Positions 2,670 to 39,690 of a DNA stretch of 64,000 bases are shown piece after piece. Under the pieces are notes generated by a model, which was not told the DNA's origin, did no database searches, and saw only the letters and a program-made list of their open reading frames with translations. A program made the position numbers and the translations under genes. Source of the DNA: Alitta virens (lineage: Eukaryota; Annelida; Polychaeta; Phyllodocida; Nereididae). The stretch is from the NCBI GenBank assembly GCA_932294295.1, contig OW028576.1, positions 27,783,227-27,847,226 of the forward strand, read 5' to 3'. The stretch's first letter is position 1. Every line of letters begins with the position of its first letter.

Positions 2670-2870
2670 GTGCGTGGTGACAGTGGTGGTCATCGTTTGC
2701 GAATTATTTAAAGGCCTCTCCCACAAAACCCCAGTTAAGTAGTGACGTCATGAAGGTGTAGTTGACCTCATCCTCAGTAAAGTAGTGCATACATTTTTTT
2801 CATCTCACCCCCCCCCCCCCATATTGTTGCAGGATGGTGGTTTGAGAAGAATCGATGATTGCCTAGCTCA

Positions 2871-5080
2871 TCATCCGGGTATCATGCGATCTGTAAAGTC
2901 ACTGGCGGTAGCTGTCTCCTCCTCCTCCTGCTGTGTGGTGGTGGTGTTGTTGTGAAGCTGTTGCATAATGTCATAAATAAACGAGCGGCGGTTGTCGGAG
3001 GAGTCGAGTTGTTGCTGCTTGAGCTTGTCGGGGGAGACTTGTACGAGATCTACTCTGACTCTATAGTTGACTGGTAACTGAAAGAAATCTCTCATGTTGT
3101 TGCATTTATAGGGAAAGGATGTAAAGTTGATGTAGGTGTCGGGTTCTTGGCATTCGTTCATGATATAGGTGGTAATTTGTTGGGTTAACCACTGGTTGCG
3201 TTGTTTTATATTGGTAAAGAAGCCTATCAAACTAATGTAGGCTGCTTGGGCTTGGAATAAAATGTTGCCGGCGGAAGCTCTGATGGTAGCGAGTTTGTCA
3301 TGAGTGGTCCACCTAATTCCTGCTTGGTCAACGTCCGAGACATTAATGGGGATGGCAGCGGAGTTGATTTTATGCTTACTTATGGTGTCCATCCTGAACA
3401 TATAAATGCCAAAGGTGTTGAAGAAAGCCTTTCTGTCGGGCCTGTTGAGAAAAAAGGTCGGATTGCTCATACCGGGTTTTTCATGGTCCGAGTCGGCTTC
3501 AGCGGGGATATATTGGAAACTTTTTTCGGATTCCGTTACTCCGAGCATGGTGTAGAACAAGAGCCCTGGAAATGCCTCTGCGGTTGATGCGTATCTTACC
3601 GTGTCTTGGACTTTGTCGTGATACATGCACTTGTCTATGATAAAGCTAGGATTGAGTGCGTTTCCCTGCTGCTGCCGAAATGCGCAGATGGTTGCTGCAG
3701 TTGAAACGAGCATGGCGTAAACCCTTTGAACGCACGAGAGGTGTCCTATCTTTTCCGATCATTGAGCATTGACCTTTTCGGGTTGAGAGGGGTTCATTTC
3801 CTTGTAGAAGGAGGAAAACTCTTTGACAGCCAATTCATCAAAATTTAACAAGTGCCCTATAGGTGAGAGCATACATGTGTCTCCTCCTCTCTGTTGCATT
3901 TTGGATAGCCCCCCGAAGACGGCTAAATTGTATTTCCTTTTGTACAGAAGGAGATTGTCTATAACGTCATTTGTGAGACCCAACATAATAGCTCGGGGAA
4001 CAGCCGCTGCTTCTTTTGTCCATTTTTGACCGCTCAACACCTTCCTCTGCAAGACCAAACTCTGCTTATTGCTTGCGTTGAAAAATAAGCCATTTGTAAA
4101 AGAGTTTATTATACTTTTCGCTGCGTTCTCAACCGCCTCCACTGATAACTTATGATGGGATCCTGTCATGAAGTTGGACGGCTTTGTCAGGAATTCGGCG
4201 TAATCAACATTTGGTGATGTGCGCATGGATTAATGAATGAAAATCTCGAAGTCTGTGTAGGTCGTTGGACACATTTGTAAATCTCTGATGGGTTGGAAGG
4301 GGATTGAAGTAAAAAGAGAGGAAAAACAGACCAAATGGTAGCCTATGTCGAATGTGTATGTTTTAATGATTTTGGGTGACACGCTTAGATCTTCCGATAT
4401 CACATTACACATATCCCTTGTGAAGAAGACGTTTTCCACAGTTCGTGGCAGAGGATAATGGGCTATACCGATGTTGTTAGCTCTCTCGTAGACATACAAG
4501 AAATCCCTAACCCACTGACTGGGTTGAGCTTTGACCGAGATATCGATCTTTACTGATGGTTTGGTCAAAGCCACCATACGTCTCCTTTGATCCAATTTTC
4601 TACCCATTTCTATCAGTTCCCTTTTCATATGACTGTGCTGCTGCAGATAAGGCGAGATCAATAAATTTGTGTACTCAGCATCATCCAGCTCTTCATCTCT
4701 GGCTAGAAATTGGGTGGTGAAAAACCCGGATGATATTTTGTCCATGGCTTTGAAATCGGCACCGGCTAACCGGTGGGCTGCAATATTGAGGTCTTCCCAT
4801 GTCATACTTTGTATAAACTCCTCTCTTTGTATGCCTGTAGTGGTCTTTTCGGGCTCATTTCTTTCATCAGAAGGAATACCTCCAAAGGTGTAATGATAGC
4901 CGATTGTAATAAAAGGTCATGGTGTTGTCTTTTTAATTCGGCTAGTGATTCTTCAAGGGCTAATACGTTGCCTATGTTATCTAAGTACTTTTTTGAATAT
5001 TCCCCAGCGGCTTTATTTAATCTTTGTCTTCCAAACACACCGCCGGCTGCTTTGCCAACCTCACTATTTCTTGCAGTCAT
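2871..5080 (-). pseudogene. Virus-like gene of unknown function, broken by one frameshift and two stops
   Basis: The reading starts at ATG 5080. From 4805 down to 2871 a single frame is open except for an in-frame TAA at 4230-4232 and an in-frame TGA at 3759-3761; the three segments look like one protein of about 645 codons. The first 92 codons (5080-4802) are in a different frame, and the downstream frame stays open to about 4915, so a frameshift probably lies between 4805 and 4915. The alternative is two genes overlapping as ATGA at 4805-4802. No membrane segment is visible; the C-terminus is Gln/Thr/Glu rich. I recognise no family; a structural or tegument protein is possible but not shown. 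It is divergent from the membrane-protein gene starting at 5079. Confidence 0.6.
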
Positions 5081-6091
5081 GAATCGGCTTATAAACTCAT
5101 TGTCCCCTCACATTGATGCTGAAATAATAGATTTGTATGATGATGATGAGGTCAATGATTATGACAATTATTATGACAGTGATGTCAAAAGATTATCTTG
5201 GTGTAGTGAAGAAAAAGAACCAAATAATGATGATGTTGTCATCGATGATGATGATGCTGCTGAAGATGGTGTCTCTCTGTCAGGAAGTATTAATTCTGAC
5301 ATAAAAGAAGGCATGTTCTTAGAGTGTCAACAATTATTTATTGCGAAAAAGAAAACCTTACTAAGATATTTAGCATTTTGTGCAATATTGGATGTAACAT
5401 GGCTTATTCTTTTGTGTTTTGCCATTCACATACACAAAGATTTCAGGCAAAATTGTAACATCGACAATAATTTTGGTTTAATGGGTATCAGTTTATTGTC
5501 TCTTTTATTGATACGTTACACCGTATACATTTTGTTCATTCTGTCCGCAATTTGGCAATTTTGGAAGTTTAGGAATTCGCCTCTGCAAAACGTTTCTTAT
5601 AGCTGTGAGATCATGAAGAAATGTACAAGCGATCTCATAGGTGATGACAGCCTGAATCATGAGAGTGACATGGGAGCTATCAGAGCTTCAATCAACATGG
5701 CTAGGGATCTGAAATCATTTAATGATATCAAAATGTTGACATGGGCAAGGACTGATCAAACTGGCTCTACCAACATTGCACAAGCCCAAAATTAAAGGAG
5801 CTTTGCACCTACATCAACAGTGTTGGTCCTTCGGATAATAAGAGAACCAGTGCTCAATCAACCCCGATTAGAAACCTCCTCGGGGTTTGTAATACCGGTT
5901 ATGAAGTCATACCACTGCTGTGTGTCATAATTTTTATTGCATCGGGAGCAGAACAACATTCCATACTAAGCCCAATAGACTGGCAAGCATGCCATAAGTC
6001 ATTATACTTCAATTGGACCATTTTAGCTGTTTTTATTGTACACAATACCATGTGCACTATAGCATTTTTAATAACAGTGGTCAGTGAGTAA
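5079..6091 (+). pseudogene. Four-span membrane protein with acidic N-terminus, frameshifted
   Basis: The first frame runs from ATG 5079 to TAA 5793-5795: an Asp-rich N-terminal region (DDDEV, DDDDAAED), then two hydrophobic segments around 5360-5430 and 5480-5570. Immediately downstream, another frame (open from about 5790 to TAA 6089-6091) encodes two more hydrophobic helices (5910-5945 and 6015-6085) and no start near its beginning. I read this as one ~336-codon gene with a frameshift near 5770-5795. Its start codon overlaps that of the minus-strand neighbour. It converges on the 6095-6892 gene with only 3 bp between stop codons. A viral envelope or membrane protein is likely; the family is not recognised. 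The upstream extension of this frame is a shadow of the opposite gene. Confidence 0.6.
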
Positions 6092-6094
6092 AGC

Positions 6095-6892
6095 TTAAAG
6101 ATTCAAAAACCATTTGTTTTTATTGACACCTTCCAGATAAATTATGATGAAAATCCACCAAAATAGCAGAAACCACGCTATTATCTCAAACAAATTCATC
6201 AAAACACTACATCGAGGTGGCTTCCTTTTTGTTGTGCATTGAATTATCCCGGGAAGCAAGAAAGCAGTATAATCTAGGATGAATAAACCTAGTGCTCCTG
6301 TTAAGGATAATAACATCAAAAGTGTGGGTTGGCATTCTTTTAACGATGGCCATTCTTTTCTGGTATATAACAGGCAATGGATAAATAGAGATGTCAGCAG
6401 TATAAACCCAAGTACCAATAGCAGTCCAATAATCCAGTAGAATCTTTCGTGAAGTGTTTTATTTGGCTTTGGACTCTTCGCGTGGTGGCTTATGAATGTC
6501 AGCACCAAGAACAGTAAGAAATAAAATGATATTCCCACCCATGCAGCAATCGATGTAGACTGATGCGTGTGGTAGAAACCCACAGGTATTTTACTATCAT
6601 TTTTCCGATAAATCGACCCACTATCATCGTTTTTTACTGCCGACCTGCAATTAGCGCAACATCTCTGTTCACCATAGCAATGCAAAACTCGATTTAAAGA
6701 ACAATGTAGCTTCAATTCCTCAATTGTCATCTTCGTGTGGTGTTTGTCAGGAATACATGCAGCAAACTTTTTGCATATTCCATCATGTCGGAAGTGCAAA
6801 ATATTTAATTCCTGCCTCATGGAAAAAAACATGAAATAAATACTTAGTCCAGCAGTAGCCAGGAGATGCATTAAGACAACTAATCGAAACAT
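6095..6892 (-). CDS. Multispan membrane protein with Cys-rich ectodomain
   Basis: 265 aa, apparently intact. An N-terminal signal/TM segment (residues 4-24) is followed by a Cys-rich region (about residues 38-85, including HCYGEQRCCANC) that would be extracytoplasmic, then four long hydrophobic helices (about 112-134, 150-175, 192-218, 232-254). The layout suggests an envelope glycoprotein-like or tetraspan membrane protein of the virus-like island. N-glycosylation sequons are few (for example NDS near residue 97). The start shares two bases with the plus-strand gene at 6891. Family not recognised. Confidence 0.65.
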   Translation of the reverse strand: MFRLVVLMHLLATAGLSIYFMFFSMRQELNILHFRHDGICKKFAACIPDKHHTKMTIEELKLHCSLNRVLHCYGEQRCCANCRSAVKNDDSGSIYRKNDSKIPVGFYHTHQSTSIAAWVGISFYFLLFLVLTFISHHAKSPKPNKTLHERFYWIIGLLLVLGFILLTSLFIHCLLYTRKEWPSLKECQPTLLMLLSLTGALGLFILDYTAFLLPGIIQCTTKRKPPRCSVLMNLFEIIAWFLLFWWIFIIIYLEGVNKNKWFLNL

Positions 6893-8263
6893 GGCTGCAA
6901 TTTCTGATGCTAGTTATATGCCCAAACGAAGTAATAGAACATTTCAATACATCTACATATCCGATAAATTCCTGCGGAACCAAAATGCTCCTAAAGGGAG
7001 AAAAATAGATGAAGGAAATTGTAGTATATTGACCAGCCTTTCTCGATGTAATTTGGCATTCCAATTGTGTGGTTTGAGTGTGGAAACTATACGTAAAAAC
7101 GTATTAACTCGGTCGAGAGAAAGTGGTGTCGGAGTAGACATCACTTTTATCGATTTGGTTCACGTATCAACACTCTGGAAGAACTGAGAAATATCAAAGT
7201 TAATTATGAAGAGATGAGTTTATCACCCATATGTGAATACCTTCATGGTGTGCTGACTGAATATGTTGAGGATTATTTCAGCATTTCGAAAAACTTGTAC
7301 ACTCGTGGACCTGTCAGGATTTTGACTCAATTATTACAACCATACGGTGTGGTGTCCACAAATAAAGACGTTGTGTCTTATATTCCGAAGTTGGAGAGAT
7401 TGAAAACCGCCGTTTTAACGACTGGGAAAATATATGTCACTCAAGCGTTTCCTTTGATTTTACCAGCGGATAAAGTGGGGGGGTTGACTAGTTTTAAATT
7501 TGCCCAGAACTTTGAGGATTCATCTAGTTTGTTTTTAGTTATAGGACCTTGGGATGAAATTCTTTGTGGTAGTTTGGGTGATAAGTTAATAGACAAACCG
7601 TCTGCCTCTAAAAGCAGTTGTAGAGAAAGACAAGTTAAAGACGTGAAAGTTTTAGATCAGGCGTATACAGCAGCATTTTTCTTTGGAGAATCTGGGGATA
7701 GCACGACTAAAATTGTGGAAGATGTCATAAGACGTTGCCGTCTTCACAAAGAATATCCGTATACAGAAACTCAGTATAGAGAAATTGCCGCCATCAAATT
7801 GGGGACTATTCCTTTCGTCAGTAAAAATACCCTGCTCAAACAGGTGAATGACTATGGTGTTTTGAGTACAGTACAAATAGACCACTTTAATTTTCATCCA
7901 GAACAGGAATGGACCTATCAGGTATTCACATACGATTTAGACTATGACGAGGTAGTAGGGGAAGCATTACAGCTTGGTCACGTACCGGATGATCATGAAA
8001 TTTACAGTTTCAAAGAGCTTATGAACTCTCGTCGAAAAAGACCTTCGGATAGTCAATATGAAGACCATGGGAAGCTTTCCAAATCCGAGGAAATCCCCCA
8101 AAAAACACCTCCCATTGCATCAGCTTCACGTTTAAAAAAGACAGAGGTTATCGCACGGCAGATTCCGCCTATTTCTGAAGCGTTATACACCAACATGAGG
8201 AAATCTAGTAGTAGAACATCAAACATTCCTACCGATATTATAACAGGTGACATTCAAAAATGA
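6891..8263 (+). pseudogene. Virus-like protein of about 457 codons, one frameshift
   Basis: The first frame runs from ATG 6891 to TGA 7185-7187 (98 codons). A second frame, open from about 7097 through TGA 8261-8263, continues with protein-like sequence upstream of its first ATG at 7214 (TLEELRNIKVNYEEM), so a single indel between about 7100 and 7187 splits one gene. The C-terminal ~90 residues are Ser/Pro/Lys-rich and look disordered. No membrane segment. The stop overlaps the next start as ATGA. A capsid or tegument role would fit the neighbourhood but no family motif is visible. Confidence 0.6.
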
Positions 8264-9012
8264 ATTTTTTATCGTCAGAAGCAAACATTGGTGGATATAA
8301 GGTAGATCATGGGTCTCACGTTGTAAGGAAGGCGCTTGAAATATTGCAGAATGGAAAACGTAAAAAAAATGACGAAAACACTGACCTCATAAACGCATAT
8401 CCTCTCTTAGACAGGCAACTGGTTGATTTCGTTAAACAACCCCATAAACTGCTTCTGTACTCAAATGTATTTGTAGAAAACACACCGAAATCCGTAAATC
8501 ACGGTTACAGTTTGTTACCTTTATTCAATTACACTGATAAAAATACAGGTGAATTTGTAAAGAATTACATCAATCCCTTTACCATGCGTTTTGAAATGAA
8601 GAACACGGATGATGCATACAAGTTACAGGCCGTATTTGGTCAGTACGAGTGCAGAATTTTTGTTCATCACATGTTATTAACACCTATTGAGAGTGTTGAA
8701 ACTCTGATAAGACTATCTAATGACAGGGTAGAGATTGAAAAGAGAGCTCCTATATCAGTCACAATTTTCTTGGACATAGGAGTGCATTTAAGCAATTTAA
8801 TGTATGCCTTAAAAATGTGTCAAAAAACGTCGTTATTGGATATGAATGTCATTAAAAATGGCAAGATGAGCGTTTCATTAACGGACAAGTATTTTACAGT
8901 CATCTTTGGAACTTCAGTGCCGCCAATAGATAACCATGAGGAGCTTCATGATCATTTTAAAGACAGTGTTTTTAAAGTTATAAATCATAAATTATGGCAG
9001 TGCGCTCAGTGA
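8260..9012 (+). CDS. Intact virus-like soluble protein, unknown function
   Basis: 250 aa, start ATG 8260 overlapping the TGA of the upstream gene (ATGA), an arrangement usual in compact viral genomes. Mixed alpha/beta composition, no signal peptide, no membrane helix, no zinc motif. It is codirectional with the preceding 457-codon gene and the following acidic protein. The size is near that of small herpesvirus capsid triplex subunits, but this is only a size resemblance and I do not assign it. Confidence 0.6.
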   Translation: MNFLSSEANIGGYKVDHGSHVVRKALEILQNGKRKKNDENTDLINAYPLLDRQLVDFVKQPHKLLLYSNVFVENTPKSVNHGYSLLPLFNYTDKNTGEFVKNYINPFTMRFEMKNTDDAYKLQAVFGQYECRIFVHHMLLTPIESVETLIRLSNDRVEIEKRAPISVTIFLDIGVHLSNLMYALKMCQKTSLLDMNVIKNGKMSVSLTDKYFTVIFGTSVPPIDNHEELHDHFKDSVFKVINHKLWQCAQ

Positions 9013-9167
9013 GCATTGAGGGTGGGGCTGACCTCTAATTTATGCTAATCTGCACTCTCCTCCCCCCTAAAGGGCCTCTCCATATGTATAATAGGCTGGT
9101 GAACATCCTAATATGCCCAGTTCCAACAAAAACAGGGCACTGCAAAGGGCATTATTACTTCGTTCAC

Positions 9168-9929
9168 ATGGATCAGTTTGGTGAAGATATAGCATACTTA
9201 TACTTACCCAGTGACGAGGAAGGCTGTTTCTCAGAGGAGGAGGGTGAGGATGTAAAGGAGGAGTGCCCAGAAATTTCTGAGAAAAAGGAAGAACAGCAGG
9301 ATATTGACATGGATGCGGAGGATGAGGAGGAGGAAGGGTGTTTAAAATCTGATCATGAAAAAAACTCTGAGGAAGAACACTACGAGAAACAAATTTCGCT
9401 TAGGAAGCAAGCTAGATATTTGCGACGTCACGTAAAACTCGCTAAGCCCCCAATATTGGTCAACAAATATGTGCATCAGTACGACATTGATATTAGTTCT
9501 AAGGATGGCGACTGGGATAATGTATCTTACTGGGGACTTCCCTTTCACAAATCTATTACCGATGATATCAAAGATACATATACAAGTTACCTGAAACACG
9601 ATTCAGAGAGAATGAAAAATCTTCCAGGATTAAGTGGAAAGAGGCTGGGATGTCGAGTTACATATAAATCACACGGACTGGTGATCCGAAAGTTATTTAA
9701 GGAAAGGGGCATAACAGAACGGCAGTGCAAAACATGGAAAAAAACGTGTGCCATGCCGGAATTTTTGCATCCAGTAGAGGTCTCTGCCATTAAGCGGATG
9801 GAAACCAGAGACAGTAATCGAAGAAAGGAACACTCGTTAAGTCAGAGGCGTGGCTTCCATCACAAATTACAGGATTATGACAAACTGTCTTCCCGAAATC
9901 ATGGACGTGGAAATTATTCCAAATGTTGA
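9168..9929 (+). CDS. Acidic/basic bipartite protein, unknown function
   Basis: 253 aa from the ATG at 9168. The frame is open from 9042, but the first 42 codons look like leader sequence and the ATG at 9168 starts the compositionally distinct protein. Residues about 16-85 are extremely Asp/Glu-rich; residues 95-253 are Lys/Arg-rich with several HRR/KRR clusters and no membrane segment. This suggests a nuclear, nucleic-acid-associated or tegument-like protein; no family is recognised. A poly(A) signal AATAAA follows at 10059-10064. Confidence 0.6.
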   Translation: MDQFGEDIAYLYLPSDEEGCFSEEEGEDVKEECPEISEKKEEQQDIDMDAEDEEEEGCLKSDHEKNSEEEHYEKQISLRKQARYLRRHVKLAKPPILVNKYVHQYDIDISSKDGDWDNVSYWGLPFHKSITDDIKDTYTSYLKHDSERMKNLPGLSGKRLGCRVTYKSHGLVIRKLFKERGITERQCKTWKKTCAMPEFLHPVEVSAIKRMETRDSNRRKEHSLSQRRGFHHKLQDYDKLSSRNHGRGNYSKC

Positions 9930-10109: not shown

Positions 10110-11144
10110 AAGCGCATGTAACAATATCTGAGACTTTTATTAGCGGCGGTTCATGAACTGTCTTTTCCACGACCCAAATTGAGCCATGCCATACTATTTT
10201 GTAGTCTTCAAAAGGTGATTCATCACTCAAGTACAAATGTTTATGTCCATGGATGTTGATTATGGGTGCGAAGAAATCAATTTCATTTTTGATTCTACCA
10301 TTCATAGACATTGGTGTTTTAGAAATACCCAAGAATGTCATTGTACTCAAGAGCCCCTCCTTGCCTTCTGCCGCATAAACAGTTTCTGATGAAGCATCCA
10401 CATAGTTTCTTGTTTAATACCTAAGATACAACATATGCACATCTTCGGTGTCATATTCAATATTGAGGTACTTCCGTTATCGAACTGGTGGGCATCAGTT
10501 TTGTCTTTATTCTTGTCAAATGGGTCCAGGTTCATAACTGATATAATCGTATCTATCAATTCTATTAAAGAATCATGATTAGTGGCTTCTAAACATGCTC
10601 CAGCGGTGAATAGATTCAACAAAACTGGACTCAGAGCTATCGGCCCAGCTCTACCCACCTGGGGATACAAATAACGATACACGCAAGACAGCTCTTGGTT
10701 GCATGTTGAGTCTAAGATGTTTCTCACACATTCTATCTTACATGAGTCAAAGTCTCTCCCTATAATATTTAGCAGAGGATTTAACATGGTTTCGCTTCTG
10801 TTCGGGTCCAATAAGGGTGAGAGATCATCTATGCAGTAGAATGCCTCATTATATTTACATTGGCCAAACCAGGGGGGTGCTGTCAACAAGTCTATCATTA
10901 TCTCATCATCCTCCACTTCTGCTTCTCCAACTTGTTTATCCAGAAACAACATAATGTCCTCAAAATATTTCGTCATGGCTTTTACGGATTGATTTGTTAC
11001 ACATGCTGGTGTGTTTTCTCCCTTTGCCGTTTGAAACACGTACATGTCTGTAGCATCTTTACTTGGAATCAATCTGACCGGTTCAGCCAAATCTGCTGTT
11101 GCTTTCACAGCATCTTCTAGAATTGTGGGGACTGCTTCAGCCAT
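10108..11144 (-). pseudogene. Virus-like protein of about 345 codons, one frameshift
   Basis: The first frame runs from ATG 11144 (MAEAVPTILED) to 10347. The second runs from about 10405 to TAA 10108-10110 and has no ATG near its start, so one gene has been split by an indel around 10350-10405. The product has no membrane helix, contains several Cys (CKIECVRNIL, CICCILG) and looks globular. Family not recognised. It lies 46 bp downstream of the stop of the gene fragment at 11191. Confidence 0.55.
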
Positions 11145-11190: not shown

Positions 11191-11375
11191 TTAACCCAGT
11201 TGATGATTTGCTAGTTGCAGTAATTCGGCCAGTGGCAAGATTAGGTCTTCGCAGGGAACATCGAATTTATAGATTTTAGGCATGACCCTACTGATTAAAT
11301 GCTCAGTTTTCTTGATCATGGTTATTTTAGATTCCGCACTGACTTTGGGTTTCAATTTACTGTAAGTTGATACGA
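11191..11375 (-). pseudogene. 3' fragment of a viral gene cut off by the BEL insertion
   Basis: About 59 codons ending at TGA/TAA near 11191 have no start of their own: the open frame runs upstream straight into the retroelement pol sequence, out of phase with it. The visible peptide (STYSKLKPKVSAES, then KTEHLISRVM) is Lys-rich and ordinary. Its position and orientation make it the likely continuation of the 617-codon gene at 17500-19353 on the other side of the retroelement. The join is inference. Confidence 0.5.
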
Positions 11376-14300
11376 GGAAGATTGTCATCTTTAATAAGCA
11401 CCACATCTCCAATGCACATATTTCTTGTGGGCTTGTTCCATTTTTGTCGTTTTTGTTGCATCAACAGATACTCCTTTTTCCAGCGTGACCAAAAAAGATT
11501 TGCAAGATATTGGACTCTTCGCCAACGATGCCGTACATACAAGTCATGCTGTTCAAAATTTCCAGGAGGAGGCATGGTAACTTGAGTTCTTCCAGTCAGA
11601 ATGTGATTCGGGGTTAAAGGTTCCAAGTCATCTGGATCCCCTGAGACAGATGTCAGTGGTCGCGAGTTCACAATCGCCTCAATTTCACAAATTAGTGTCT
11701 GGAAGGATTCTTCATCTAACTGATGACCATGTTCTTGAAGGAGACCATCTAACACTTTGCGGACAGTTCTAATTGACCGTTCCCAGGTCCCACCCATGTG
11801 ACTTCCTGTGGGGGGGTTGAACTTCCATTTGATTCCAAGATTTCTGAATTCAGTTTTCATGGCAGTCTGATCCATCTCAGCAACAGCTTCCTTCAATTCT
11901 TTATTCGCTCCAGTGAAGTTAGTGCCGTTGTCACTATAGAGCTCCTTAACATTTCCCCTCCTTGCGATGAAACGTCTCAATGCATGGATACAGGAATGCA
12001 CATCAAGGGAATTGGCGACCTCCAAATGTATGGCTCTACTTGCCATGCATGTCAGCATCACACCATAGCGTTTGACATCTTTTCTTCCTTGGCGTACAAC
12101 AAAAGGTCCAAAATAGTCCACACCAGTAAATGTAAATGGAGGTGCTGTATCATCTGTTCGACAAACAGGTAAGTGAGACATTTTTTGTTCTTGAACATGA
12201 CCTCGAAGTTTGCGACAATTGACGCAATGATGGATGACATTACGTACTGCTGAATTGGCTCCAATTATCCAATATTTCTGTCGAAGATTGCTTAGTACGT
12301 GATTTCGTCCTGCATGACCAAGCCGACAATGTTCGTGATTAATGAGAAGGCAAGTAATGTTGGATTTCCTAGGAAGAATTACTGGATGTTTTGCCGATTC
12401 ATTCAATCTTGCATGTTTCAGGCGGCCGCCAACATGTAATATGCCATCTTGCAAATAAGGATCTAAGGAGTACAGCGTACTTGACTTTGGCAAATATCTA
12501 CCATCACGGGAAGTATCATCATTCGAAAATGATAAGAGCAATCTCATCTCATCAGGAAATGTCCTCCGATGAAGCCAGCGAAAGATTTCCAATTCAGCTT
12601 GTTCGATATCCGCAACTTGCAAGCAATACATCTTCGGTGATTCTTGAACATTTGCAGACTGTTTTCTAGACTTCACCTTGTCCAAAAGGATCACCTTAAG
12701 CTTCAGAAAAACTGCAACAGCTCGCTTGAGGACATTCCATTTAGAGAAGTGAGTCATCAAACTCTCCATGGCACATGATGACATTTGAGCTTGAGTAACA
12801 TTAACTGTCGTTTCCACCTCACCATTTTGACCAACCATGTCTTCTGGTATTGGAGGTGGATCAAGGTTCAAGCATTTTCCATCCCAGAGAAATGTAGGTC
12901 CTTTAAGCCATACAGACTCTTCCAGCAACTTTTCAACTGAGAGTCCTCTAGATGCCTCGTCTGCCGGGTTGAGATCAGAACTCACATAACGCCACTCTGC
13001 AGGAGTTGAGAAATTTCTTATCAGTTGGACTCTGTTTGCTATGAAGACTGGCCATCTCTTCTTGTCATTCTGTATGTAATGCAATACAGTTGTGGAGTCT
13101 GTATAATAAGTAATGCTGTCAACATTGTCTAATTCATACTTCATCATTCTCGCCAACTTGATTCCCGTGACTGCGGCCATCAATTCCAACCTGGGGATTG
13201 TTACAGTCTTCAAGGGTGTTAAACGTGCTTTGCCAATCAAAAAAGCTACATTGTGATTACCTTGATCATCAGTTGTGCGTAAGTAAATCACCGTTCCATA
13301 TCCAGAAGTACTGGCATCATTGAAAACATGCATTTCTTTTGCAGTTATGTTTCTTGCATCTATGAGAAAGTTTCTTTGAAGTTTCACTTGCGTTAAATTG
13401 GGCAATGAAGACAACCAGCTCTGCCAATCATTCAGGTGCGCTGATGGTATTTCATCATCCCATCCCAAATGATTGTCGCAACATAGATCTTGCAAAGTCT
13501 TCTTGGCTGGAAGGATTACAGGTGCCAGGAATCCTAACGGATCATACAAGGATGAAATTACCGATAAAATTCCTCTTCTTGACAAAGCTTTGTTCTTCTC
13601 CACAAAATTGAACCCAAATTGGTCTAACTTGATATCCCATTGAATACCAAGGGCTCTTTCAAATGTCATCTCATCAAGATGCAGATCTTGTTTCAAGAGA
13701 ACACAGGATTGTTCTTCTGCAGGTAAACTCTGAAGTATTTCTGGGCGGTTACTCGTGAATTTAGTCAAATGAAAACTTGCGGCTGCACACACATCCCAGA
13801 GTTTTTTCACCAGTTCTTTGCCTTCAGTAACGCAGTTCAAAGCCTTCAAGCAGTCATCTACATAAAAGTTTCTTTCAATCACTTTGATTACCTCAGCATC
13901 CTGAGATAACTTTGCTGTACTATGCAGAGCAAAGTTGGCAATACTAGGTGACGAAACTGCTCCGAACAGGTGCACAGTCATCTGATATTCCCTCATTGGA
14001 CCTTCAAGATTTCCATCGGGCCACCACAGAAACCGTAAGTAGCTGCGTTGACTATCTGGAACCTGGACTTGATAAAACATGCTCTCGACATCCGCCATGA
14101 AAGCAATTGGTCCTTCTCTGAAACGGGTAAGTACACCAATCAAGCTATTTGTGAGATCAGGGCCCTGTAGCAGACAGTCATTTAAAGACACCCCCATGTA
14201 CTTCGCGCTGCAGTCGAATACAACCCGTATCTTGTTTGGCTTGTGAGGGTGGTATACTCCGTGGTGAGGAAGGAACCAGGTTTGTCCATGTGGAGAAAAC

Positions 14301-15385: not shown

Positions 15386-15397
15386 ACACTTCCTCCT

Positions 15398-20900: not shown

Positions 20901-20932
20901 ATAGGTTCCAGCTGCAATTGCCTCCTGTAAAT

Positions 20933-27116: not shown

Positions 27117-27161
27117 TATTCTTTGCAAACCATTCAATTTCTTTCTATATAATTCGTTGAA

Positions 27162-27996
27162 CTATATTTCGTTTGATTCCGTCTCCGAATCTTCTTCCTC
27201 AGTTTCACCATGTCTTTCTGGGGCTGTTATTGGTTTTTTCATCAACAGCCTTCTCTTTATAGTAACGGTACCAGCCAAACTCCTTACAGTGTTCAATCTT
27301 GTACTCGCCATTTCTTTTCTTAATTTTCAGTAGACAGGTTTCCGACTCTTCTACCCTTGTCTTTGGAGGCAGTGTTCTGGAAAACACCACGGTGAGTCGT
27401 GCTTCATTGAATACATGTGGTCCAAGACTGAATAATGTGCGGGAAGTATCAAGGTTACTCATAGCATAGACGATGCGAACATCTAGTGGCCCTACTCTTG
27501 GTAAACCAAAGATGTCATTCGAACGTGTCACATCATTCCTTGTAAATCTGTTAATACATTCCACATTGCGATAACCATTAAATACAGCAGCATGAGAGTA
27601 AAGGAATTTTGTGAAATGGATTAAGGTTTGTCGTATTGTGTCGTGTTGGTCTGAGAAACTTTTGCTAAAACGCACTTGTCCCGATTTCTTCACGTGTTGT
27701 CTGACAGGTAAATAAGTTGGTCGATCCGCCTGAAGAGAAATTACTACAAGTTTGGGAACATTTTCGTTTTCTTTAATATCCTCCATAATTTGTAGTAAAA
27801 TAGTCTTCAGTCTTCCACATATCCCGATGCATCTACTCTCTTGTTCTTTCAAATAATCTTTAAAATATTCCTCCACATTGCGGTCTATGTTATATCTCTT
27901 TTCTGCTGTAAGTTGTTTCCATTTGTGTTGAAAGCTTTTAACATCCAAGCCATTCACAAGTTGTTTGGCCAGGGCTCGGCTTTCCACAAGCTCCAT
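27162..27996 (-). pseudogene. Virus-like protein of about 278 codons with acidic tail, frameshift at an A run
   Basis: ATG 27996 opens a frame to 27205. The alternative frame from the A-run at about 27234-27239 runs on to TAG 27162-27164 and encodes a typical acidic tail (ETEEEDSETESNE), whereas the first frame ends in an unremarkable basic tail. A one-base length change in the A-run is the simplest explanation; it could be real, or an assembly error. No membrane helix; no family recognised. It is divergent from the cyclin gene and shares its TATA region. Confidence 0.55.
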
Positions 27997-28048: not shown

Positions 28049-28101
28049 GCATGATGTCACAGGCCAGTTTGGCCTTTATTTCAAGCTTACCACCGAGCAG
28101 T

Positions 28102-28842
28102 ATGGAAGGGCAAATTATTATAAACGACTGTTTCATGGCTTCACGCAACGATCAGTTTTTTGACATGCCAGTTGACGAAGTGAATAGTGTTGTGGAAGTA
28201 TGGTTTGACCGTGAAAAAACTTGGGAAAAGTTTTCAGTGCCTGACAGCTGTGCACGAACACGAATGTCCAAATGGCTTCTATTACTGATGGACTATTTAA
28301 AATATCCTACTGCAATTTATTCTTTGGCAATGACATATTATGACAGGATTATGAGAAATTTAACAACCAACAACCAAGATAACATTAATTTACTCGGCAT
28401 TACATGCCTTACTCTGGCAGCAAAAATGAGGGTCAGTTCGGATCAATACATCTTGAAGGAGAAAAATGCAGCACAGTTGACAAAGGACCACTTCACAAAA
28501 CGAGATGTTCAAAACTGCGAAATTCTTATATGCCACCTATTGGACTGGAAAATGATTGTACCAATACCCCAGGATTTTGTCTTGTTTTATGCTCAAAAGA
28601 TAGCCAGAGGAGAATCATTGCAGCGAATAATTCTGATAGCTACGACACTTGCTTGTGGGATGATGCATTTCAGCCTGATGATCAATGACTACAAGCCATC
28701 GGTGTTAGCAGCAGTTTGTGTTATTAAGACTGCTGAATTCTATTACATTGATTGCAACTGTTTTTTTCAAACGGAAGATGCACTCGAAATATCAGAAGCT
28801 CTCAATGTTTTTTCAACAGTTAGCTACATTCATGATCTATAA
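28102..28842 (+). CDS. Cyclin-box protein (virus-encoded-type cyclin)
   Basis: 246 aa from ATG 28102, chosen because of the TATA box at 28041. The cyclin N-terminal box spans about residues 35-155: ARTRMSKWLLLLMDY (helix 1), LAMTYYDRIM (helix 2), LLGITCLTLAAKMR with the conserved Lys108, and NCEILICHLLDWKM with the conserved Glu140; this Lys-Glu pair contacts the CDK in known cyclins. A shorter second fold follows (160-246). It looks most like D-type/viral cyclins. It would bind and activate a host cyclin-dependent kinase, pushing cells towards S phase. No introns, no frameshift, in contrast to the usual split structure of animal cyclin genes. AATAAA follows at about 29007-29012. Confidence 0.8.
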   Translation: MEGQIIINDCFMASRNDQFFDMPVDEVNSVVEVWFDREKTWEKFSVPDSCARTRMSKWLLLLMDYLKYPTAIYSLAMTYYDRIMRNLTTNNQDNINLLGITCLTLAAKMRVSSDQYILKEKNAAQLTKDHFTKRDVQNCEILICHLLDWKMIVPIPQDFVLFYAQKIARGESLQRIILIATTLACGMMHFSLMINDYKPSVLAAVCVIKTAEFYYIDCNCFFQTEDALEISEALNVFSTVSYIHDL

Positions 28843-29128: not shown

Positions 29129-30641
29129 TTAGTCAAAGTAATCAGGGCTAACTTCTATTTTAGGTAGATGGGCAACGGGTCTGTACAAAACCTTTTGTCT
29201 CTCTTCAAATGAGAAATTTTGGTATACCTCAAGAAGAACTTGAGAGTCACCATCAAGTCCTTGCGATGCTAGAGCCATTTCTCTGAATAGAGTCTCACTG
29301 AACCTGTCAACAGCTTTGCTCTGTATTCCAACATCATAAGCAAATATCATAGTTGGTTGAAAAGAGTTATGAACTTTTAATCTTAGGGCTACAGCGAAAA
29401 GAGATTTGACATCTTCGTTGTATTGTCTGGCAACTAAATGCTCTTCCATAACTTGGTTAAAGTGATTACAGTTAAGACACAGCATGAGTGGCGACTTGTC
29501 CCAGTAGAAACGAAGGCATTCTCGTTCCCAATTCGAGCCAGAAACATTATAAACCAGTAAAAGTGCTTTACCAGGGCTAACTAAGCTACTAATTTCGTCC
29601 ATCTCTTCCTGCACTTTCATTTTTTTCTTCGGGGGATGATTTTCATTTGCTTTACACTGGTGTATTGTGGGTAGAGGGGCCATACTTGGGCACATGTTCC
29701 CATCAAATTTCATTCCGTTTGTCATAGTAGTGAATTCTTCGGTAGGATAAAACACTGTGCTGCGTAGCAAAAAGGGATGCTTGCTCCGTCTTTTTGTATC
29801 ATCTGAGTCCCGAGGTATCCATTTCGCATCTTTCAACTTTGCTATGAATAATTCCAATGACTTTCGTTTGGAAAGATCAGCAAGGCCATCGTTATACATA
29901 TTGGTCAAGTTTATAATTTCTTGCTGTTCGAGAAGTGCAGCGTTGTGTATTGTCTTTAATTCTAGAGTAAGCCAAGGTGCTCCCATAGTGCGAGTGGAGA
30001 AGGAGGAATCTGAGCCTTCTTCTAGTAAATCGCAGAAGCTTTCTTTATTCAGTACGCTAATGGCATCTGGGGTCACTCCTATCCATGGAATTCCTTGGTG
30101 AACCATACGGCCCGGTATAAAGTGTTGAAGATGTTGCCAACCGAATATTTTGGCACATTCTTCCATTATATCTTGCCCATACAATTCATGCATATAACTT
30201 CCGATTTGTAAAGGCGATTTCATCATCTTTGATATATCAACTGGAACATTAGTGCATTCTCCCTTTCTGAAAACTGCCACTAAGTCATTGTAATTATTCA
30301 TACAATTCTGGAAACCATTATCTGCTGACCACCATGGGACGAGGCCAATCAATAATTTGTACCACATCCAGCTTCGTTTTGTTATTTTTTCCTTCTAACT
30401 TCAAACACTCTTTAATATTTTGCTTGCTCGCGACATGTTTAATGATATCCAGAAAAAATAACTTTTTAGTTTCCCTGGCGATTGCTATAGAACTCTGCGT
30501 TACCATGTGATAGGCATCAAATATCCTGTCTGCACCTAATAGTACCTTAATTTCTGATTCTAGTGGTCCTTCATATTTTTCCAATATTATTTTCAAACTC
30601 TTTCGGAGGGCATGTAAGGTGTTCTTTTGCCAGACTTCCAT
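29129..30641 (-). pseudogene. Herpesvirus alkaline nuclease/YqaJ-type exonuclease, frameshifted
   Basis: The first frame runs from ATG 30641 to about 30318; the second, open from about 30367 to 29129, carries the nuclease core. Together they make about 500 codons, the usual size for this family. Core motifs: SYMHELYGQD (Glu near 30188), GVTPDAI with the metal-binding Asp (codon near 30065), and LELK with the Glu and Lys (codons near 29960 and 29954), the D...ExK signature of the PD-(D/E)XK exonucleases that process viral DNA and act with single-strand annealing proteins. The frameshift lies between 30318 and 30367, upstream of all catalytic motifs. A minus-strand AATAAA lies near 29045. I assign family, not orthology. 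Confidence 0.7.
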
Positions 30642-30809: not shown

Positions 30810-31334
30810 ATGGAGAACATCTGTTCACCAGAGATTACTTCTTTTGTTGAAATGGAATCTGTACCTCTTACATTCATTGGTCAGCAGTTTTTGTGTGATG
30901 ACCATAACTTCATGCATTATTATGTTTGCTGTATTTGCTTCAACAATATACCAGATGTGAAGTTGCTACCATGTCAGCATTATATTTGTCAACAGTGCGC
31001 TTTTAATTTTTGGTGGGGATGTCTGTCATGGAAATCTGCTCCTCTAAGCATTGTGAGATGTCACTGTTGCAATGCAACTGTATTGGAATTGTACCACCAC
31101 AAAGAAGAATTGTTATTGAGGAAAACATTAGTTGACCTGGACGATTACGTGAGAATTGACTATGATGCAAGAACAGTTGTTTTCAATAATTTACCAGGGA
31201 TTAAAATTGATTTGGAAATAGTTCGTGAGAAAAAGGATAAACTTTTCCCATTCTCTTGGTCAGACTCTTTAAGGTGTGATGTGAGATTGTTTTTATTTGG
31301 TGAATTCAAAAACCGGATTAACAATGGATGGTGA
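30810..31334 (+). CDS. RING-type zinc-finger protein
   Basis: 174 aa from ATG 30810. The RING spans about residues 43-95: CCICF, CQHYICQQC, and a last pair CHCC, the C3HC4 spacing except that the middle loop (FNFWWGCLSWKSAPLS) is long. The remainder (residues 100-174) has no recognised domain. Such small RING proteins of large DNA viruses are often E3 ubiquitin ligases that target host restriction factors; this is family knowledge, not shown here. Divergent from the nuclease gene with 168 bp between starts and no TATA visible. Confidence 0.7.
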   Translation: MENICSPEITSFVEMESVPLTFIGQQFLCDDHNFMHYYVCCICFNNIPDVKLLPCQHYICQQCAFNFWWGCLSWKSAPLSIVRCHCCNATVLELYHHKEELLLRKTLVDLDDYVRIDYDARTVVFNNLPGIKIDLEIVREKKDKLFPFSWSDSLRCDVRLFLFGEFKNRINNGW

Positions 31335-32070: not shown

Positions 32071-32084
32071 TATACACAGTCATA

Positions 32085-35000
32085 ATGACATCTGCACCTT
32101 TAGGGGATTCAGTTTTTGGGATTCAAAATGGGTTGAACTTACAAATGTTGCCAGCAACGGGCAATGCGGCTAGCCAGTCGTTGCAAAAGGCATTAATGAA
32201 AGAAATTGGACTAAATATTTCTTCCACCGATGTGACCGGTAACTACAAAAGCATTTTAGCCGCCAAAGAAGTCTGTAATGACATTATCATGGTGTTCATT
32301 GGTGATGATAAATCGATTGTGTATTCACCCATTGGACAGGCGTTCCATATAAGTTATGCTCATTACATACATGTGAAAAGATTGTTTGATCAAATAGGTG
32401 TAACAGTTACCACACCAGCACCTGTTGCGATAAAAAACAGACGTCCAGTTAAATCTGCCACTTTCCTCATTGAGCGCAACTTTAGAAAAGTGAAAAGAGT
32501 TTCGCTTATGCACATCCCGAGAGATGTTAGTGTAATTGAAAAATTGAAGATGAACATAGCATACTTCAACCCCTTAGATCCGGACAGTACAGGAATGGAA
32601 ACAAAATTGTCCGCTAAAGAACAGTTAGAGCAAATGAAAACAAATATTATCAATGCATTGGGTCAGTGTTTTGTGACCCCGGCCTATACCTTGAAAGATT
32701 CCATACAGAAGGGTGTTGTGGATGAAGCTGTGATGTCCTTGGTTCAATCGGCTATACCTTTTGCATTGGCCAATGTAAGCAATAGATTCGCAACATCGAT
32801 AGCGGAGGGTTCTACCCCTGGTGATTGGGAGAATAATGCTCAATTACAAAAAAAACTTGGCAAAAGAGTATGCCAAGAAAGTGTGTGACACCGCCTTCTT
32901 ATTGAGTAAAAATCCAGAAGCTTTCTTGCAAGAAGTCATTCAAATTGGCTTATCATCCGTTAAAAATGTAGTTGGCCTCACCAATGATGCCTACGTTGTA
33001 GATGGTCAAAATGTTTATGAAATGGACGGCATAGTTTTATTAAGTCATCAAGCCCATAGATTCCTCACAACTCATTCTTCAATAAAACTATCTCAGCTTA
33101 GAAACGGTGTTTTGGTTAATGTCAAACCAGCGTTTTACAAACCGACCACGGTTTTCAGTGAAAATGACCCAACCAAAACTATTCACATGATGTATGAGGT
33201 TAATAAAGAAACTAGCAACATAAATAGTCAGGACATAATTGAAATTATCAAAACTATTATGGAACAGAATGGATTCCCCTCTGCCAGGGAAAATGGTCGT
33301 GGAGCAGTGATGTTATCTGAACAGGGTAGAAAGATTTTGGCAGGTGCAAAGTTGGAAGAAACCAATGCACGGATTTCCACAAGGGAAAGATTTGAATTGG
33401 GTTGTTATTTGGTTAAAGAGCCATGTACCTTCATGGTTTATGATAATAAAGCCTACATCATAGATCACACTAGGGAATACATGGTTCTCAAGGAAAGTCC
33501 TGATTTTTATGGGCGGTCACCATCATTAGTTGCTTTGAAACATAACTTTTTCAGAATATCTCTGGGAGATATAGATGATAAAAATGAATACCTAACGAAA
33601 TGGATTTCAATGGTCTGTGTTTCGGGTGACAAAACTAGTTCTTCAAATGTAGAACCGCACACATATTTTAGTGTAAAACCAGTAACAATGAATACACCTG
33701 CCCTGTCACCCCAAGTGTTAACGTTTGGTTTAAATGAACTAAGGACAGTATTCATGGATCCAGCGTTATATAATGCCAAATTGCAGGAGGAAGCCTTGAA
33801 TGCCAACCTAGTACGTTTGGGAGCAACATCAGAAACAAAATTGTTACCTATGAAAGAATTAATTACTTTACAGTTATCAATTGCTAACCAGGTGACTAAT
33901 CTCTTCAAAATATATTATAACGAAAGCACAAGCACTGGTACGGTTTATGCGAAGGGCGATCAGGCTTTAACCGCACTACAGCGTATAGAATTACACCCTT
34001 TTTTCAGCGTGAGAACTCAAAAAGACGATCAAAGCAATAAATTCACATTCAAGTTTGTACCGAGATCAGTATATCTGGAAATTCCCATGTATCAGCACCC
34101 ACCAGAGAGTGTTCTAAACAGGGGTTTGTTTCTTTTAGCCAAAGGTCTCCCTGAATCCAAGATTTTGGCATTAGAAATGAAAATAAAAAGTCTTAAAAAA
34201 AAGCTTGCTCCAGAAAAGAAAGTTGTCACAAAATATTCTGAAATTGAACCTGAAATGACAAATGAGGTAAATGAATTAATGCTAACCTTTAAACAAGTGT
34301 TCAACAAGAGTTCATATGACGTGAGTAGAATAAATTTCCTCTTTAAAGATTTTTCAACAAAGGATACACCACAGGATTAGATCGATTCTCGTTGGCTGTT
34401 CATTAAATATGTTATCTTGCCGGTATTGGCACAAGGAAAAATCACATATAAAAATGACGATAGACAGACATCAATGGAGGCAGGAATATTGCACAAGGAC
34501 GAAATCATAGTAAACGATGACACAGCTAATCATTTTAACATTTTTAGCAAAGATCATTTATTCTCGAAAGATAATGACTTAATCATGAGTGCAAATGTTC
34601 ACTGGATCACCAGCAAAAGTAATATGCCCATGATTTTACAAATAGCAGCTTTAACAATGCAATATTGTCTTCTGACACCTACAGCACTAAGCGCAACCCT
34701 TTTAGAAGAATGCCATCCAGGGTTTGCTGTTGATTTCCTTCGGTATGAACCTATTTATTCTGAACAGGCTTTATTCACAACCAGAGGTTCACACGAAATG
34801 ATACTGTCACCTGGCGGAGTGGAAGAAAAATCACAAGCGGATGATGCTATCGACATAGAAGTTATTACTGATATCCACACGACAAGAAACACTCTCGCTG
34901 CAGGGGCACTTATAGTGCCTTGCATTCATCCTAATGAGAAAGGGATGACTACGGGTCAAAATGCTACTGGTAAACCTATTATAACAAGAGATGGGATTAT

Positions 35001-35766
35001 TAGAACACCATTGGGTAGCTTAGAAAATGCATTAGATCACCACAGTAAAACTTTGGATGAAAAGGAATTCAAATCAATAACGGATCAGCTACGAATTAAA
35101 ACTCGCCCTAAAAATACCTACAGTAGTCACTTTAGCGGAACAGAAAACAAATACCCCAATGAGTTTGTACCTTTTATCAGACCTGTGAAGGAACCTTGTG
35201 ATGGAATTCTTCCCATAATGGGCATTGAGAAAAGCGCTTGTGTGCCTTTAGCTGGATCAAACAGTACAGGTTGGGAGAGTTTCTACTTATCTGATGAACC
35301 CACGACAAACACATATGCCAGTGCTTTCGGAAGTTTATACGCTCTTAGATATACTAAAAACAACACACCTCTCATGGATTATAACCGTGGGTTTTTGTTG
35401 AAGACTACGTGTGAACCTGGACATGAACAACCTTGTCTTACAACTGTGGCTTTAGAAGAATTATATGATTTATCCTTTGGTCTCCCGGTGCTGTCTAGCG
35501 ATGAACGCTCATTTATAACGTTAAATTCAGTTCATCAATTTGAAAATGTTTGTGACAGAAAATACAAAATGCCTCACTCTACTAGCGATGCCATTGGAAA
35601 ACCAATTTTGGGAAAAATGGATGTGCCAGCCGCTATGGGTTTTAGTGTGCCATACACTTTTACAACAAACAAGCGCCTATTGACAAAATTCCCTCCCTTT
35701 CAAAATTTCAATTTGAAAGGTCCTAATGACTGTTTAATAATTTCACCATTTACATTACTTTGCTAA
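32085..35766 (+). pseudogene. Large soluble protein, candidate major capsid protein, frameshift plus TAG stop
   Basis: Three open segments form one gene of about 1230 codons. Segment 1 (ATG 32085 to TGA at 32886-32888) and segment 2 (frame from about 32850 to TAG 34378-34380) are separated by a one-base shift at an A8 run (32849-32856). Segments 2 and 3 share a frame and are separated only by the TAG; the sequence after it continues as protein without an ATG for 12 codons. There is no signal peptide, membrane helix or enzymatic motif; the composition is that of a structural protein. It is the longest gene of the island, and its size is in the range of Herpesvirales major capsid proteins. The identity is inference from size and neighbours only. 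AATAAA follows at 35818-35823. Confidence 0.5.
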
Positions 35767-35997
35767 TAACACATTTGTTACATTTCCTTGGAATGAGTGA
35801 ATTGATTAAAAATTTGAAATAAATCAACTCGATGGAAAACAAACTTTGGTTCAGTGGTCATTTTTTTATTTCGATTAATCAAACAGTAACAATAAATACA
35901 TTTACACTGAGAACGTACAGATGTATATAATATCAGGTCAAGTTATATAAACTAGTCCGTTTTTTTTTTTCTTCTCTGTCCAACTTTAGGGTCCCAT

Positions 35998-36844
35998 TTA
36001 CATATAGCTTTTAACGCTGTAAGCAATAGGTTCGCGGCAAACGGGGCACTTTCGAAGAGCAGCTGCGCACCTTTCGCAACATACCAAATGCCCACATGGT
36101 TGAAAAAGTGAGCAGATATTCCCGGTAAGACAAACTTTACACTCAAATGCTTCCTCTAAATCCTTAATTTTTTCCTTCAAACGTTTCGTCCTGCTTTTAC
36201 AACCGAGTTTTTTTGTATTGTCTTTTTTAATGTTGTAACTCTATATGTCTTCAGGAGATGTACCAAGTTCCATCTTGTTTGTTTGTGTTCCTTTGTCAAT
36301 GTAAGTAATGTCCATAAGTTCCATCTTGTTTTTTAGTGTTCCTTTGTCAATGTAAGTAATGTCCATATCAGTTCCAAAGTTTATTTTATCAACTTTATTC
36401 GTGATCATTTCGACATCAGCGAATATGGTACTTTTTTTGGTGGTTAACCAGTTTTCAGCAAAATGAACGCACGCTAACCATAAATGCTTGCAATATCTGT
36501 TATATTTTATATGACACAATAATGGGTTGTCTTCAGGCTTCCATTGCACCAAGGTTAAGCCGCATTCATAACATGTAGTCTGATCTTCCTTGCCTATAAA
36601 CAGAGAATAAGTTAATTCATCTTTCGTTAACATAATTGAAATTATATTTATGGTGGGGTTGTCAACAGAAGAAAACAAAACTATTACCTGTGGAGAAAAA
36701 ACCACATTGTGCCATCATTTCTGGTTTTTGTATTGCAATGTTTGTCCATTTATCATCAAAGGTCATCAATCTTTTGTCATAGTCTGCATAAGATGGATGT
36801 TTTGATGCAGATTTAACTCCTTTGAAAAAAATTGTATCATCCAT
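35998..36844 (-). pseudogene. IAP-like BIR + RING protein with one intron and a premature TAG
   Basis: Exon 1 is 36844-36688, donor CAG|GTAATA; intron 36687-36594 (94 bp), acceptor TTTATAG|GC; exon 2 from 36593. The phases match (1/2). The junction falls inside the BIR: GFFSTG before it, then CYEC, W, H and C at the exact CX2C-X16-H-X6-C zinc spacing. A linker with two copies of a 17-residue unit (nt 36270-36375) ends at TAG 36241-36243. The same frame goes on to a short helix and a C-terminal RING (CKVC, CGH, CCERC, CPVC), the standard end of IAPs. IAPs block caspases and ubiquitinate targets. BIR and RING proteins are common in malacoherpesviruses. The TAG separates the two domains. Confidence 0.8.
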
Positions 36845-36976
36845 GGTAAAAGATCAGTAGCAGCAGCTGAGGAAAAGAAACAATGCTGAATTCAAGGGAA
36901 GTGAATAAATGATTGGGTGTAGGAGGGGGGGGGGAGGTTGTTGGTGTGGCCTAGGTAGGTGGGGCATACCATCTCA

Positions 36977-36984
36977 TATAAAAG
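36977..36984 (+). promoter_or_regulatory. Orphan TATA box TATAAAAG at the island edge
   Basis: TATAAAAG on the plus strand is followed by about 75 bp of leader-like sequence, then an ATG at 37063 that belongs to the repeat block and is followed by a stop after three codons. No gene follows. It looks like the promoter of a viral gene whose body has been lost at the junction. Confidence 0.5.
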
Positions 36985-37061
36985 CGGGCAGATGAAGTGA
37001 AAACTATTTTACTAAAGAACGTGGCAGTGTACAGTCTACTGCAGTCTAGTACTGTCACATT

Positions 37062-39657: not shown

Positions 39658-39690
<33 letters not shown>

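What the first reader, a model, noticed from the sequence alone, without database searches (positions are those of the whole stretch)
2860..37060. Endogenous malacoherpesvirus-like island of ~34 kb in an animal genome
Seen: compact, almost intronless genes on both strands, touching or overlapping starts and stops, paired poly(A) signals, and a gene set (alkaline-nuclease-type exonuclease, BIR/RING IAP, RING proteins, cyclin, multispan membrane proteins, a ~1230-codon structural-type protein) flanked by ordinary spliced and repetitive animal DNA. Known: malacoherpesviruses carry several BIR and RING genes and a viral recombinase nuclease. Inference: a fragment of such a virus or a sister lineage became integrated and is decaying.
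Basis: partly seen in the sequence, partly recalled or inferred. Interest (0 to 1): 0.9.

Follow-up and report, generated by a model that had tools for sequence, protein, structure and literature searches.

The report
Decaying herpesvirus fragment in animal DNA
This DNA, likely from an animal, holds a broken herpesvirus major-capsid gene inside a 34-kb block of compact genes that is likely a piece of a herpesvirus integrated into a chromosome, adding a possibly undescribed lineage to the herpesvirus fossil record.

Summary
A full-length herpesvirus major capsid protein (MCP) gene lies at 32,085-35,766 (+) in three ORF pieces: the frame changes near 32.85 kb and a stop interrupts it near 34.38 kb. 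Pfam Herpes_MCP hits the last piece at 1.5e-8. Eight full-length relatives, 41-51% identical, from unnamed contigs, all match that profile at E <= 1. A partly confident model aligns with herpesvirus MCPs (VP5 upper domain: 234 residues, 3.9 A). The '1230-codon structural-type' protein is a retroelement ORF: the island contains a BEL/Pao gag-pol without LTRs and a LINE, about 11 kb together. The remaining ~23 kb holds a D-type-like cyclin, a BIR-RING gene, a RING protein, probable membrane proteins, a nuclease by motif only, and unknowns. No second gene is herpesviral by homology, so 'one virus' rests on density and arrangement. The right flank is repeat-rich without ORFs of 150 aa. Malacoherpesviral identity was untestable: no malacoherpesvirus sequence was in reach. 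Best reading: a retroelement-invaded endogenous fragment of an unplaced Herpesvirales lineage. Host species and junction reads remain unchecked.

The parts
2871..4805 (-). Broken viral-type gene of unknown function (three ORF pieces of 191, 155 and 280 aa in one frame, parted by stops near 4.23 and 3.76 kb)
   Evidence: that the three pieces are one gene is inferred from the shared frame. No Pfam match above cut-off; PDB: one unrelated row at E 1.2 for the 280-aa piece; one weak PHROG hit (0.0014, RNA polymerase) for that piece, taken as chance. Higher GC (0.43-0.47) than the other ORFs
4893..5795 (+). ORF 300 aa, two hydrophobic stretches; probable membrane protein
   Evidence: no family above cut-off
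6095..6892 (-). ORF 265 aa, five hydrophobic stretches; probable multispan membrane protein
   Evidence: no family above cut-off
7214..9012 (+). Two overlapping ORFs (349 and 250 aa), unknown
   Evidence: no Pfam family at E <= 1; PHROGs only at E 0.25 and 0.31
9042..9929 (+). ORF 295 aa with acidic stretch, unknown
   Evidence: no family above cut-off; PHROG only at E 0.42
10347..11144 (-). ORF 265 aa, unknown
   Evidence: no family above cut-off
11357..17377 (-). BEL/Pao retroelement gag-pol inside the array (A17 peptidase, integrase, DUF1759 gag); no LTRs found, pol ends inside DUF5641 (54 of 94 positions)
   Evidence: Pao peptidase 3.9e-44; DUF1759 1.5e-10; no repeat pair flanks it. That the 170-aa ORF at 16,865-17,377 is its gag start is inferred from position
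17500..19353 (-). ORF 617 aa, unknown
   Evidence: no Pfam above cut-off, no PDB match at E <= 10, no PHROG, no relative at E <= 1 among 4,201 candidates
19650..24658 (+). LINE: ORF1 with NADAR and a weak GDSL-like match (416 aa), ORF2 with endonuclease and reverse transcriptase (1241 aa), both open
   Evidence: NADAR 1.6e-25; GDSL-like 0.0031, below cut-off; RVT_1 8.3e-33; Exo_endo_phos 4.9e-8
25471..27996 (-). Three ORFs (163, 401 and 263 aa), unknown; the first two overlap
   Evidence: no family above cut-off; no relative of the 401-aa ORF in viral contigs
28051..28842 (+). Single-ORF cyclin, nearest to D-type cyclins; likely captured from a host
   Evidence: Cyclin_N 1.5e-13; cyclin D1 3.3e-10 in PDB
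29129..30367 (-). ORF 412 aa, probable PD-(D/E)XK (alkaline-nuclease-type) nuclease by motif only
   Evidence: PDA at residue 100 and LELK about 35 residues on; no Pfam or PHROG match, one unrelated PDB row at E 1.9, no relative in viral contigs
30810..31334 (+). RING-type protein, 174 aa
   Evidence: zf-C3HC4_3 3.9e-4, below Pfam's cut-off
32085..35766 (+). Herpesvirus major capsid protein gene, complete in length but broken (frame change near 32.85 kb, stop near 34.38 kb)
   Evidence: Herpes_MCP 1.5e-8 in the last piece; relatives 41-51% identical; fold match
35998..36844 (-). BIR-RING inhibitor-of-apoptosis gene, interrupted by a stop between BIR and RING; probable GT-AG intron of 94 nt at 36,594-36,687; viral or host
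   Evidence: BIR 1.5e-7 to 2e-7, RING 4.2e-13, reading; no RNA evidence
37059..45619 (.). Right flank: palindromic A/T-rich array and repeat units at about 4 kb spacing (two copies 98% identical); probable host DNA, marks the right edge
120..1697 (-). LRR transmembrane-type protein, left flank; probably host, boundary uncertain
   Evidence: LRR_8 1.1e-31; CpG o/e like the island's

Best explanation
The island carries a broken herpesvirus major capsid gene and is likely a fragment of a herpesvirus, of a lineage not yet placed in a family, that probably integrated into an animal chromosome and has been decaying since. Shown: the MCP gene is present over its full length and interrupted in two places; a BEL/Pao element and a LINE sit within the gene array; the array joins repeat-rich DNA without long ORFs in this sequence. 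Inferred: infection of the germ line placed a piece of a larger viral genome in the chromosome, probably by host break repair or recombination, since no viral transposase, terminal repeat or convincing target-site duplication was seen; retroelements then inserted; the virus had taken a cyclin, and perhaps the IAP, from an animal, likely to push the cell cycle and block apoptosis. As it stands the locus is likely unable to build a capsid from its own MCP.
Against: Only the MCP is herpesviral by homology; the other non-retroelement ORFs are host-type or gave no family above cut-off, and of these only the 617-aa ORF was put to the large protein search, without result. No terminase, DNA polymerase, portal, triplex or protease was recognised. 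The N-terminal and middle MCP pieces alone do not match Herpes_MCP, nor the middle piece any PDB MCP; two partial relatives score below the Pfam cut-off, and PDB searches with the wider alignments were weaker (0.0068; 0.048). The left LRR gene has island-like CpG (0.77-0.81), and so has the bin across the right edge (36,001-38,000: 0.75), so edges are not set by composition. The IAP's probable intron would also fit a host gene. Junction reads, host species and other copies could not be checked.
Confidence: 0.8

Rival explanations
1. It is a member of Malacoherpesviridae proper, like the proviruses of amphioxus and Capitella (a refinement of the best explanation, not its opposite).
For: Integrated invertebrate herpesviruses in the papers seen are of this kind (passages of PMC12373286, PMC5552708, PMC2994540); a BIR gene and RING genes are present.
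Against: No malacoherpesvirus protein was matched or available; the viral fold library was uninformative. The MCP is detectable by sequence against orthoherpesviruses. BIR and RING genes occur widely.
Confidence: 0.25
2. Only the right-hand part (about 25.4-36.9 kb) is herpesviral; the left genes (2.9-19.4 kb) come from another DNA virus, mobile element or host.
For: No homology links left and right. The 617-aa ORF has no relative. The one left-right ORF match (E 0.001) runs through an acidic stretch and was not accepted. The leftmost gene has a higher GC (0.43-0.47) than the rest.
Against: Same density and strand mixing on both sides; a LINE and a BEL/Pao element lie between as later insertions.
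Confidence: 0.2
3. Assembly chimera: viral DNA of an infected animal joined wrongly to host contigs.
For: Reads were not available.
Against: The MCP carries a frame change and a stop, and two retroelements lie inside; a replicating virus would not be expected to look so.
Confidence: 0.06
4. An ordinary cluster of host single-exon genes.
For: Cyclin, IAP, RING and LRR proteins are host-type.
Against: A herpesvirus MCP gene by sequence and fold; the neighbouring 27 kb has no ORF of 150 aa.
Confidence: 0.01

Closest known systems
Endogenous malacoherpesvirus-like elements of amphioxus (AaHV-1, BelcheriHV-1) and Capitella
   Same: Herpesvirus genes in an invertebrate chromosome, in amphioxus mostly without introns
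   Different: The amphioxus ones span about 150 kb; all have polymerase and terminase matched to malacoherpesviruses (passages of PMC2994540, PMC12373286, PMC5552708). Here about 23 kb, with a broken MCP, no such genes in the window and no tested link to malacoherpesviruses
Sandworm and Peanut worm herpesvirus contigs (PMC6950620, passages)
   Same: Invertebrate-associated herpes-like sequences placed between Malacoherpesviridae and the vertebrate alpha/beta/gamma group by terminase
   Different: Placed by terminase from RNA data; no MCP comparison was possible, and the host of the present window is not known
Orthoherpesviridae major capsid proteins (EBV, KSHV, HCMV, HSV-1)
   Same: Herpes_MCP profile and upper-domain fold
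   Different: 8-14% identity over the fold alignments; shorter protein (1,214-1,280 aa in the full-length relatives, against 1,330-1,381 aa for the MCPs)
Teratorn (alloherpesvirus fused with piggyBac, medaka; listing and abstract start only)
   Same: Endogenous herpesvirus with mobile-element genes
   Different: No piggyBac match among the ORFs scanned here; the BEL/Pao and LINE look like later insertions

Membership tests
Order Herpesvirales | Herpesvirus-type major capsid protein | tested here: met
   Profile 1.5e-8, 8 of 8 full-length relatives at E <= 1, fold with VP5 upper domain 3.9 A over 234 residues
Order Herpesvirales | HK97-type floor domain of the MCP | tested here: inconclusive
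   The N-terminal piece was not modelled, and much of residues 96-313 is low confidence
Order Herpesvirales | Terminase ATPase, portal, protease, triplex | tested here: inconclusive
   No Pfam hit at E <= 1 in 27 window ORFs, but the island is a fragment and sequence search is insensitive between families (abstract of PMC13030845)
Order Herpesvirales | Family B DNA polymerase | tested here: inconclusive
   Not among the ORFs of the window; rest of the genome not searched (genome search did not complete)
Malacoherpesviridae | Core proteins closest to OsHV-1/HaHV-1 | not testable with these tools
   No malacoherpesvirus sequence in reach; BFVD search uninformative
   One BIR-RING gene and one further RING protein; a fragment only
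Orthoherpesviridae | Core proteins nested within alpha/beta/gamma | tested here: inconclusive
   MCP detectable against EBV and KSHV, but no tree with all families could be built
Endogenous viral element | Contiguous with host DNA | tested here: inconclusive
   Repeat arrays adjoin at 37.06 kb in the given sequence, but the left edge is uncertain and read support could not be tested
Endogenous viral element | Inactivating changes and later insertions | tested here: met
   MCP broken twice; BIR-RING gene interrupted; BEL/Pao and LINE inside

The most novel reading that the evidence does not exclude
The island is the first chromosomal relic of an undescribed family of Herpesvirales of invertebrates, defined by an MCP clade known otherwise only from unnamed contigs, standing nearer to the vertebrate Orthoherpesviridae than the mollusc viruses do and armed with its own D-type cyclin and IAP; orthoherpesvirus-like capsids would then predate vertebrates.
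Probability: 0.25. Interest if true: 0.85.

Novelty: new variant of a known kind. Interest (0 to 1): 0.6.

Why it matters
Integrated herpesviruses of invertebrates are few and, in the papers seen here, malacoherpesvirus-like. A relic with a full-length MCP gene, together with the MCP relatives found here in unnamed contigs (ten records, of which P0001 equals P0006 over their shared columns), gives material to ask when the capsid of vertebrate herpesviruses arose and how wide the order's host range is. It also gives a capsid profile with which further herpesviruses can be sought. If the host proves to be a vertebrate, the find would matter less for the age of the order and more for its fossil record.

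Tried and rejected
Reading the ~1,240-codon ORFs as structural proteins was rejected: they are retroelement polyproteins. Relatives in viral contigs were sought with the C-terminal MCP piece, three MCP alignments, the nuclease and the 401-aa ORF (6 of 8 scans) and in one scan of genome contigs: none confirmed. Phage records: three hits at E 1-3, taken as chance. The 617-aa ORF: no relatives. The protein search scored only the 7,993 candidates sharing most words, so its nine hits are a lower bound. The first AlphaFold job failed and was not used for a fold search. The BFVD search gave nothing at E <= 0.001; a phocid gammaherpesvirus MCP fragment stood at rank 4 with E 0.33. The tree of 9 MCPs left 4 of 6 inner branches unresolved, with the window's MCP on the second longest branch (0.97; P0011 1.23). 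No LTR pair, convincing target-site duplication or telomere-like repeat was found (short exact words shared by flanks were 8-12 bases and not at the element ends). Two weak ORF-to-ORF matches were dropped after inspection. Right-flank ORFs: 10 scanned, no family above cut-off. No RNA families or tRNAs. Papers: the 2023 survey of invertebrate herpesviruses and the 2018 malacoherpesvirus protein analysis are not held, so I do not claim that this lineage is absent from print; nine searches were made.
Full report
OBSERVATION. Of 27 ATG ORFs of 120 aa or more in the window, 25 lie between 2,871 and 36,633. ORFs of at least 150 aa cover 0.82 of 2,860-37,060 and 0.00 of 37,061-64,000. In 200 first-order Markov resamples of each stretch the highest coverage was 0.07 (left, observed 0.85), 0.00 (middle, observed 0.86) and 0.04 (right, observed 0.75); in the flank 37,750-64,000 the observed coverage was 0.00. 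CpG o/e is 0.37-0.77 in 2-kb bins of 2,001-36,000 and 0.00-0.49 from 38,001 on; but the leftmost 2 kb, with the LRR gene, has 0.81, and the bin across the right edge 0.75. The right flank begins at about 37.06 kb with an A/T-rich palindromic array, followed by long repeat units (two copies 98% identical over about 2 kb) and a 79-bp satellite.

WHAT THE ORFS ARE. Pfam scans of all 27 ORFs show that four island ORFs are retroelement genes by profile and a fifth by position: a BEL/Pao gag-pol on the minus strand (Pao peptidase 3.9e-44, integrase domains, DUF1759 gag, and a 170-aa ORF before it) and a LINE on the plus strand (NADAR in ORF1; endonuclease plus reverse transcriptase in ORF2). The BEL element has no LTR pair and its pol ends within DUF5641 at position 54 of 94, so it is an incomplete copy. 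Without the two retroelements the island holds roughly 23 kb.

THE CAPSID GENE. ORF 34,474-35,766 matches Herpes_MCP (PF03122) at 1.5e-8, 33.1 bits against a cut-off of 25, and solved MCPs of EBV (3.1e-5) and KSHV (1.2e-3). A first search with this piece gave two relatives, which score below the Pfam cut-off. A second search, with 32,836-35,766 read across its stop as X, gave nine hits, eight of them full-length proteins of 1,214-1,280 aa at 41-51% identity over 99-100% of the query (a capped candidate list). Their sources are unnamed contigs of up to 34.6 kb. All eight match Herpes_MCP at E <= 1, best 1.9e-11. The ORF before it, 32,085-32,888, is the N-terminus of the same protein: 58% identical to residues 1-266 of P0004; the middle piece is 48% identical to it. 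tblastn of six of the eight full-length relatives gives two stretches in two frames that meet near 32.85 kb, with one stop in the second stretch, in all six; in three of the six the first stretch runs on past the frame change and then holds two stops. The gene is therefore complete in length and broken in two places. The N-terminal and middle pieces alone do not match Herpes_MCP, and profile searches of the PDB with the wider alignments were weaker (0.0068 and 0.048).

OTHER GENES. A 263-aa single-ORF cyclin is nearest to D-type cyclins (cyclin D1 3.3e-10); no gammaherpesviral cyclin is among the 25 matches at E <= 0.001 listed there, so it may be a separate capture (inferred). A BIR-RING gene at 36.0-36.84 kb reads as exon, GT-AG gap of 94 nt, exon, with a stop between BIR and RING; it may be viral or host. 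A 174-aa RING protein scores below Pfam's cut-off. The 412-aa ORF has a PDA...LELK motif that fits a PD-(D/E)XK nuclease but no family match. The 617-aa ORF had no relative among 4,201 candidates. The rest are unknown.

INTERPRETATION. The best reading is an integrated fragment of a herpesvirus, decayed and invaded by retroelements. That the left-hand genes belong to the same virus is inferred from density and arrangement, not from homology; composition is broadly similar, though the leftmost gene has a higher GC. An animal host is inferred from BEL/Pao (recalled to be confined to animals), the LINE, the LRR gene and CpG depletion; its species is unknown, and that it is an invertebrate is a guess. 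How the piece integrated is unknown: no terminal repeats, convincing target-site duplications or viral transposase were seen.

PLACE AMONG KNOWN VIRUSES. Integrated malacoherpesvirus-like genomes are known from amphioxus and Capitella (passages of PMC2994540, PMC5552708, PMC12373286). Herpes-like contigs of a peanut worm and a sandworm fall between Malacoherpesviridae and the alpha/beta/gamma group (passages of PMC6950620). The island's MCP family cannot be placed among these here. Its detectability against orthoherpesvirus MCPs hints at a lineage other than the mollusc viruses, but an alloherpesvirus MCP is also detectable by BLAST against orthoherpesviruses (abstract of PMC13030845), so the hint is weak. 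It is filed under Herpesvirales, family open.

Noticed in passing
2,220-2,750: All four TGACGTCA sites of the window lie here, three of them in a 38-bp tandem repeat, at the left edge of the island; could be a viral or host regulatory stretch.
   Followed up: partly
11,357-17,377: BEL/Pao gag-pol without LTRs and cut short in DUF5641, packed tightly among viral-type ORFs; the ORF piece at 11,194-11,355 may be the far side of an interrupted gene.
   Followed up: partly
19,650-24,658: LINE whose ORF1 joins a NADAR domain to a weak GDSL-like match; both ORFs are open, which suggests a young insertion.
   Followed up: no
28,051-28,842: Single-ORF D-type-like cyclin, a parallel to the cyclins of gammaherpesviruses (recalled) but nearest to cellular cyclin D1 in the PDB.
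   Followed up: partly
37,540-39,510 and 41,531-43,496: Two 98% identical copies of a repeat unit at about 4 kb spacing, containing 232-bp tandem repeats.
   Followed up: no
47,647-50,557: 79-bp satellite; CpG o/e of 48,001-50,000 is 0.00.
   Followed up: no
120-1,697: LRR transmembrane-type protein in one ORF with island-like CpG; it may belong to the host or to the element.
   Followed up: partly
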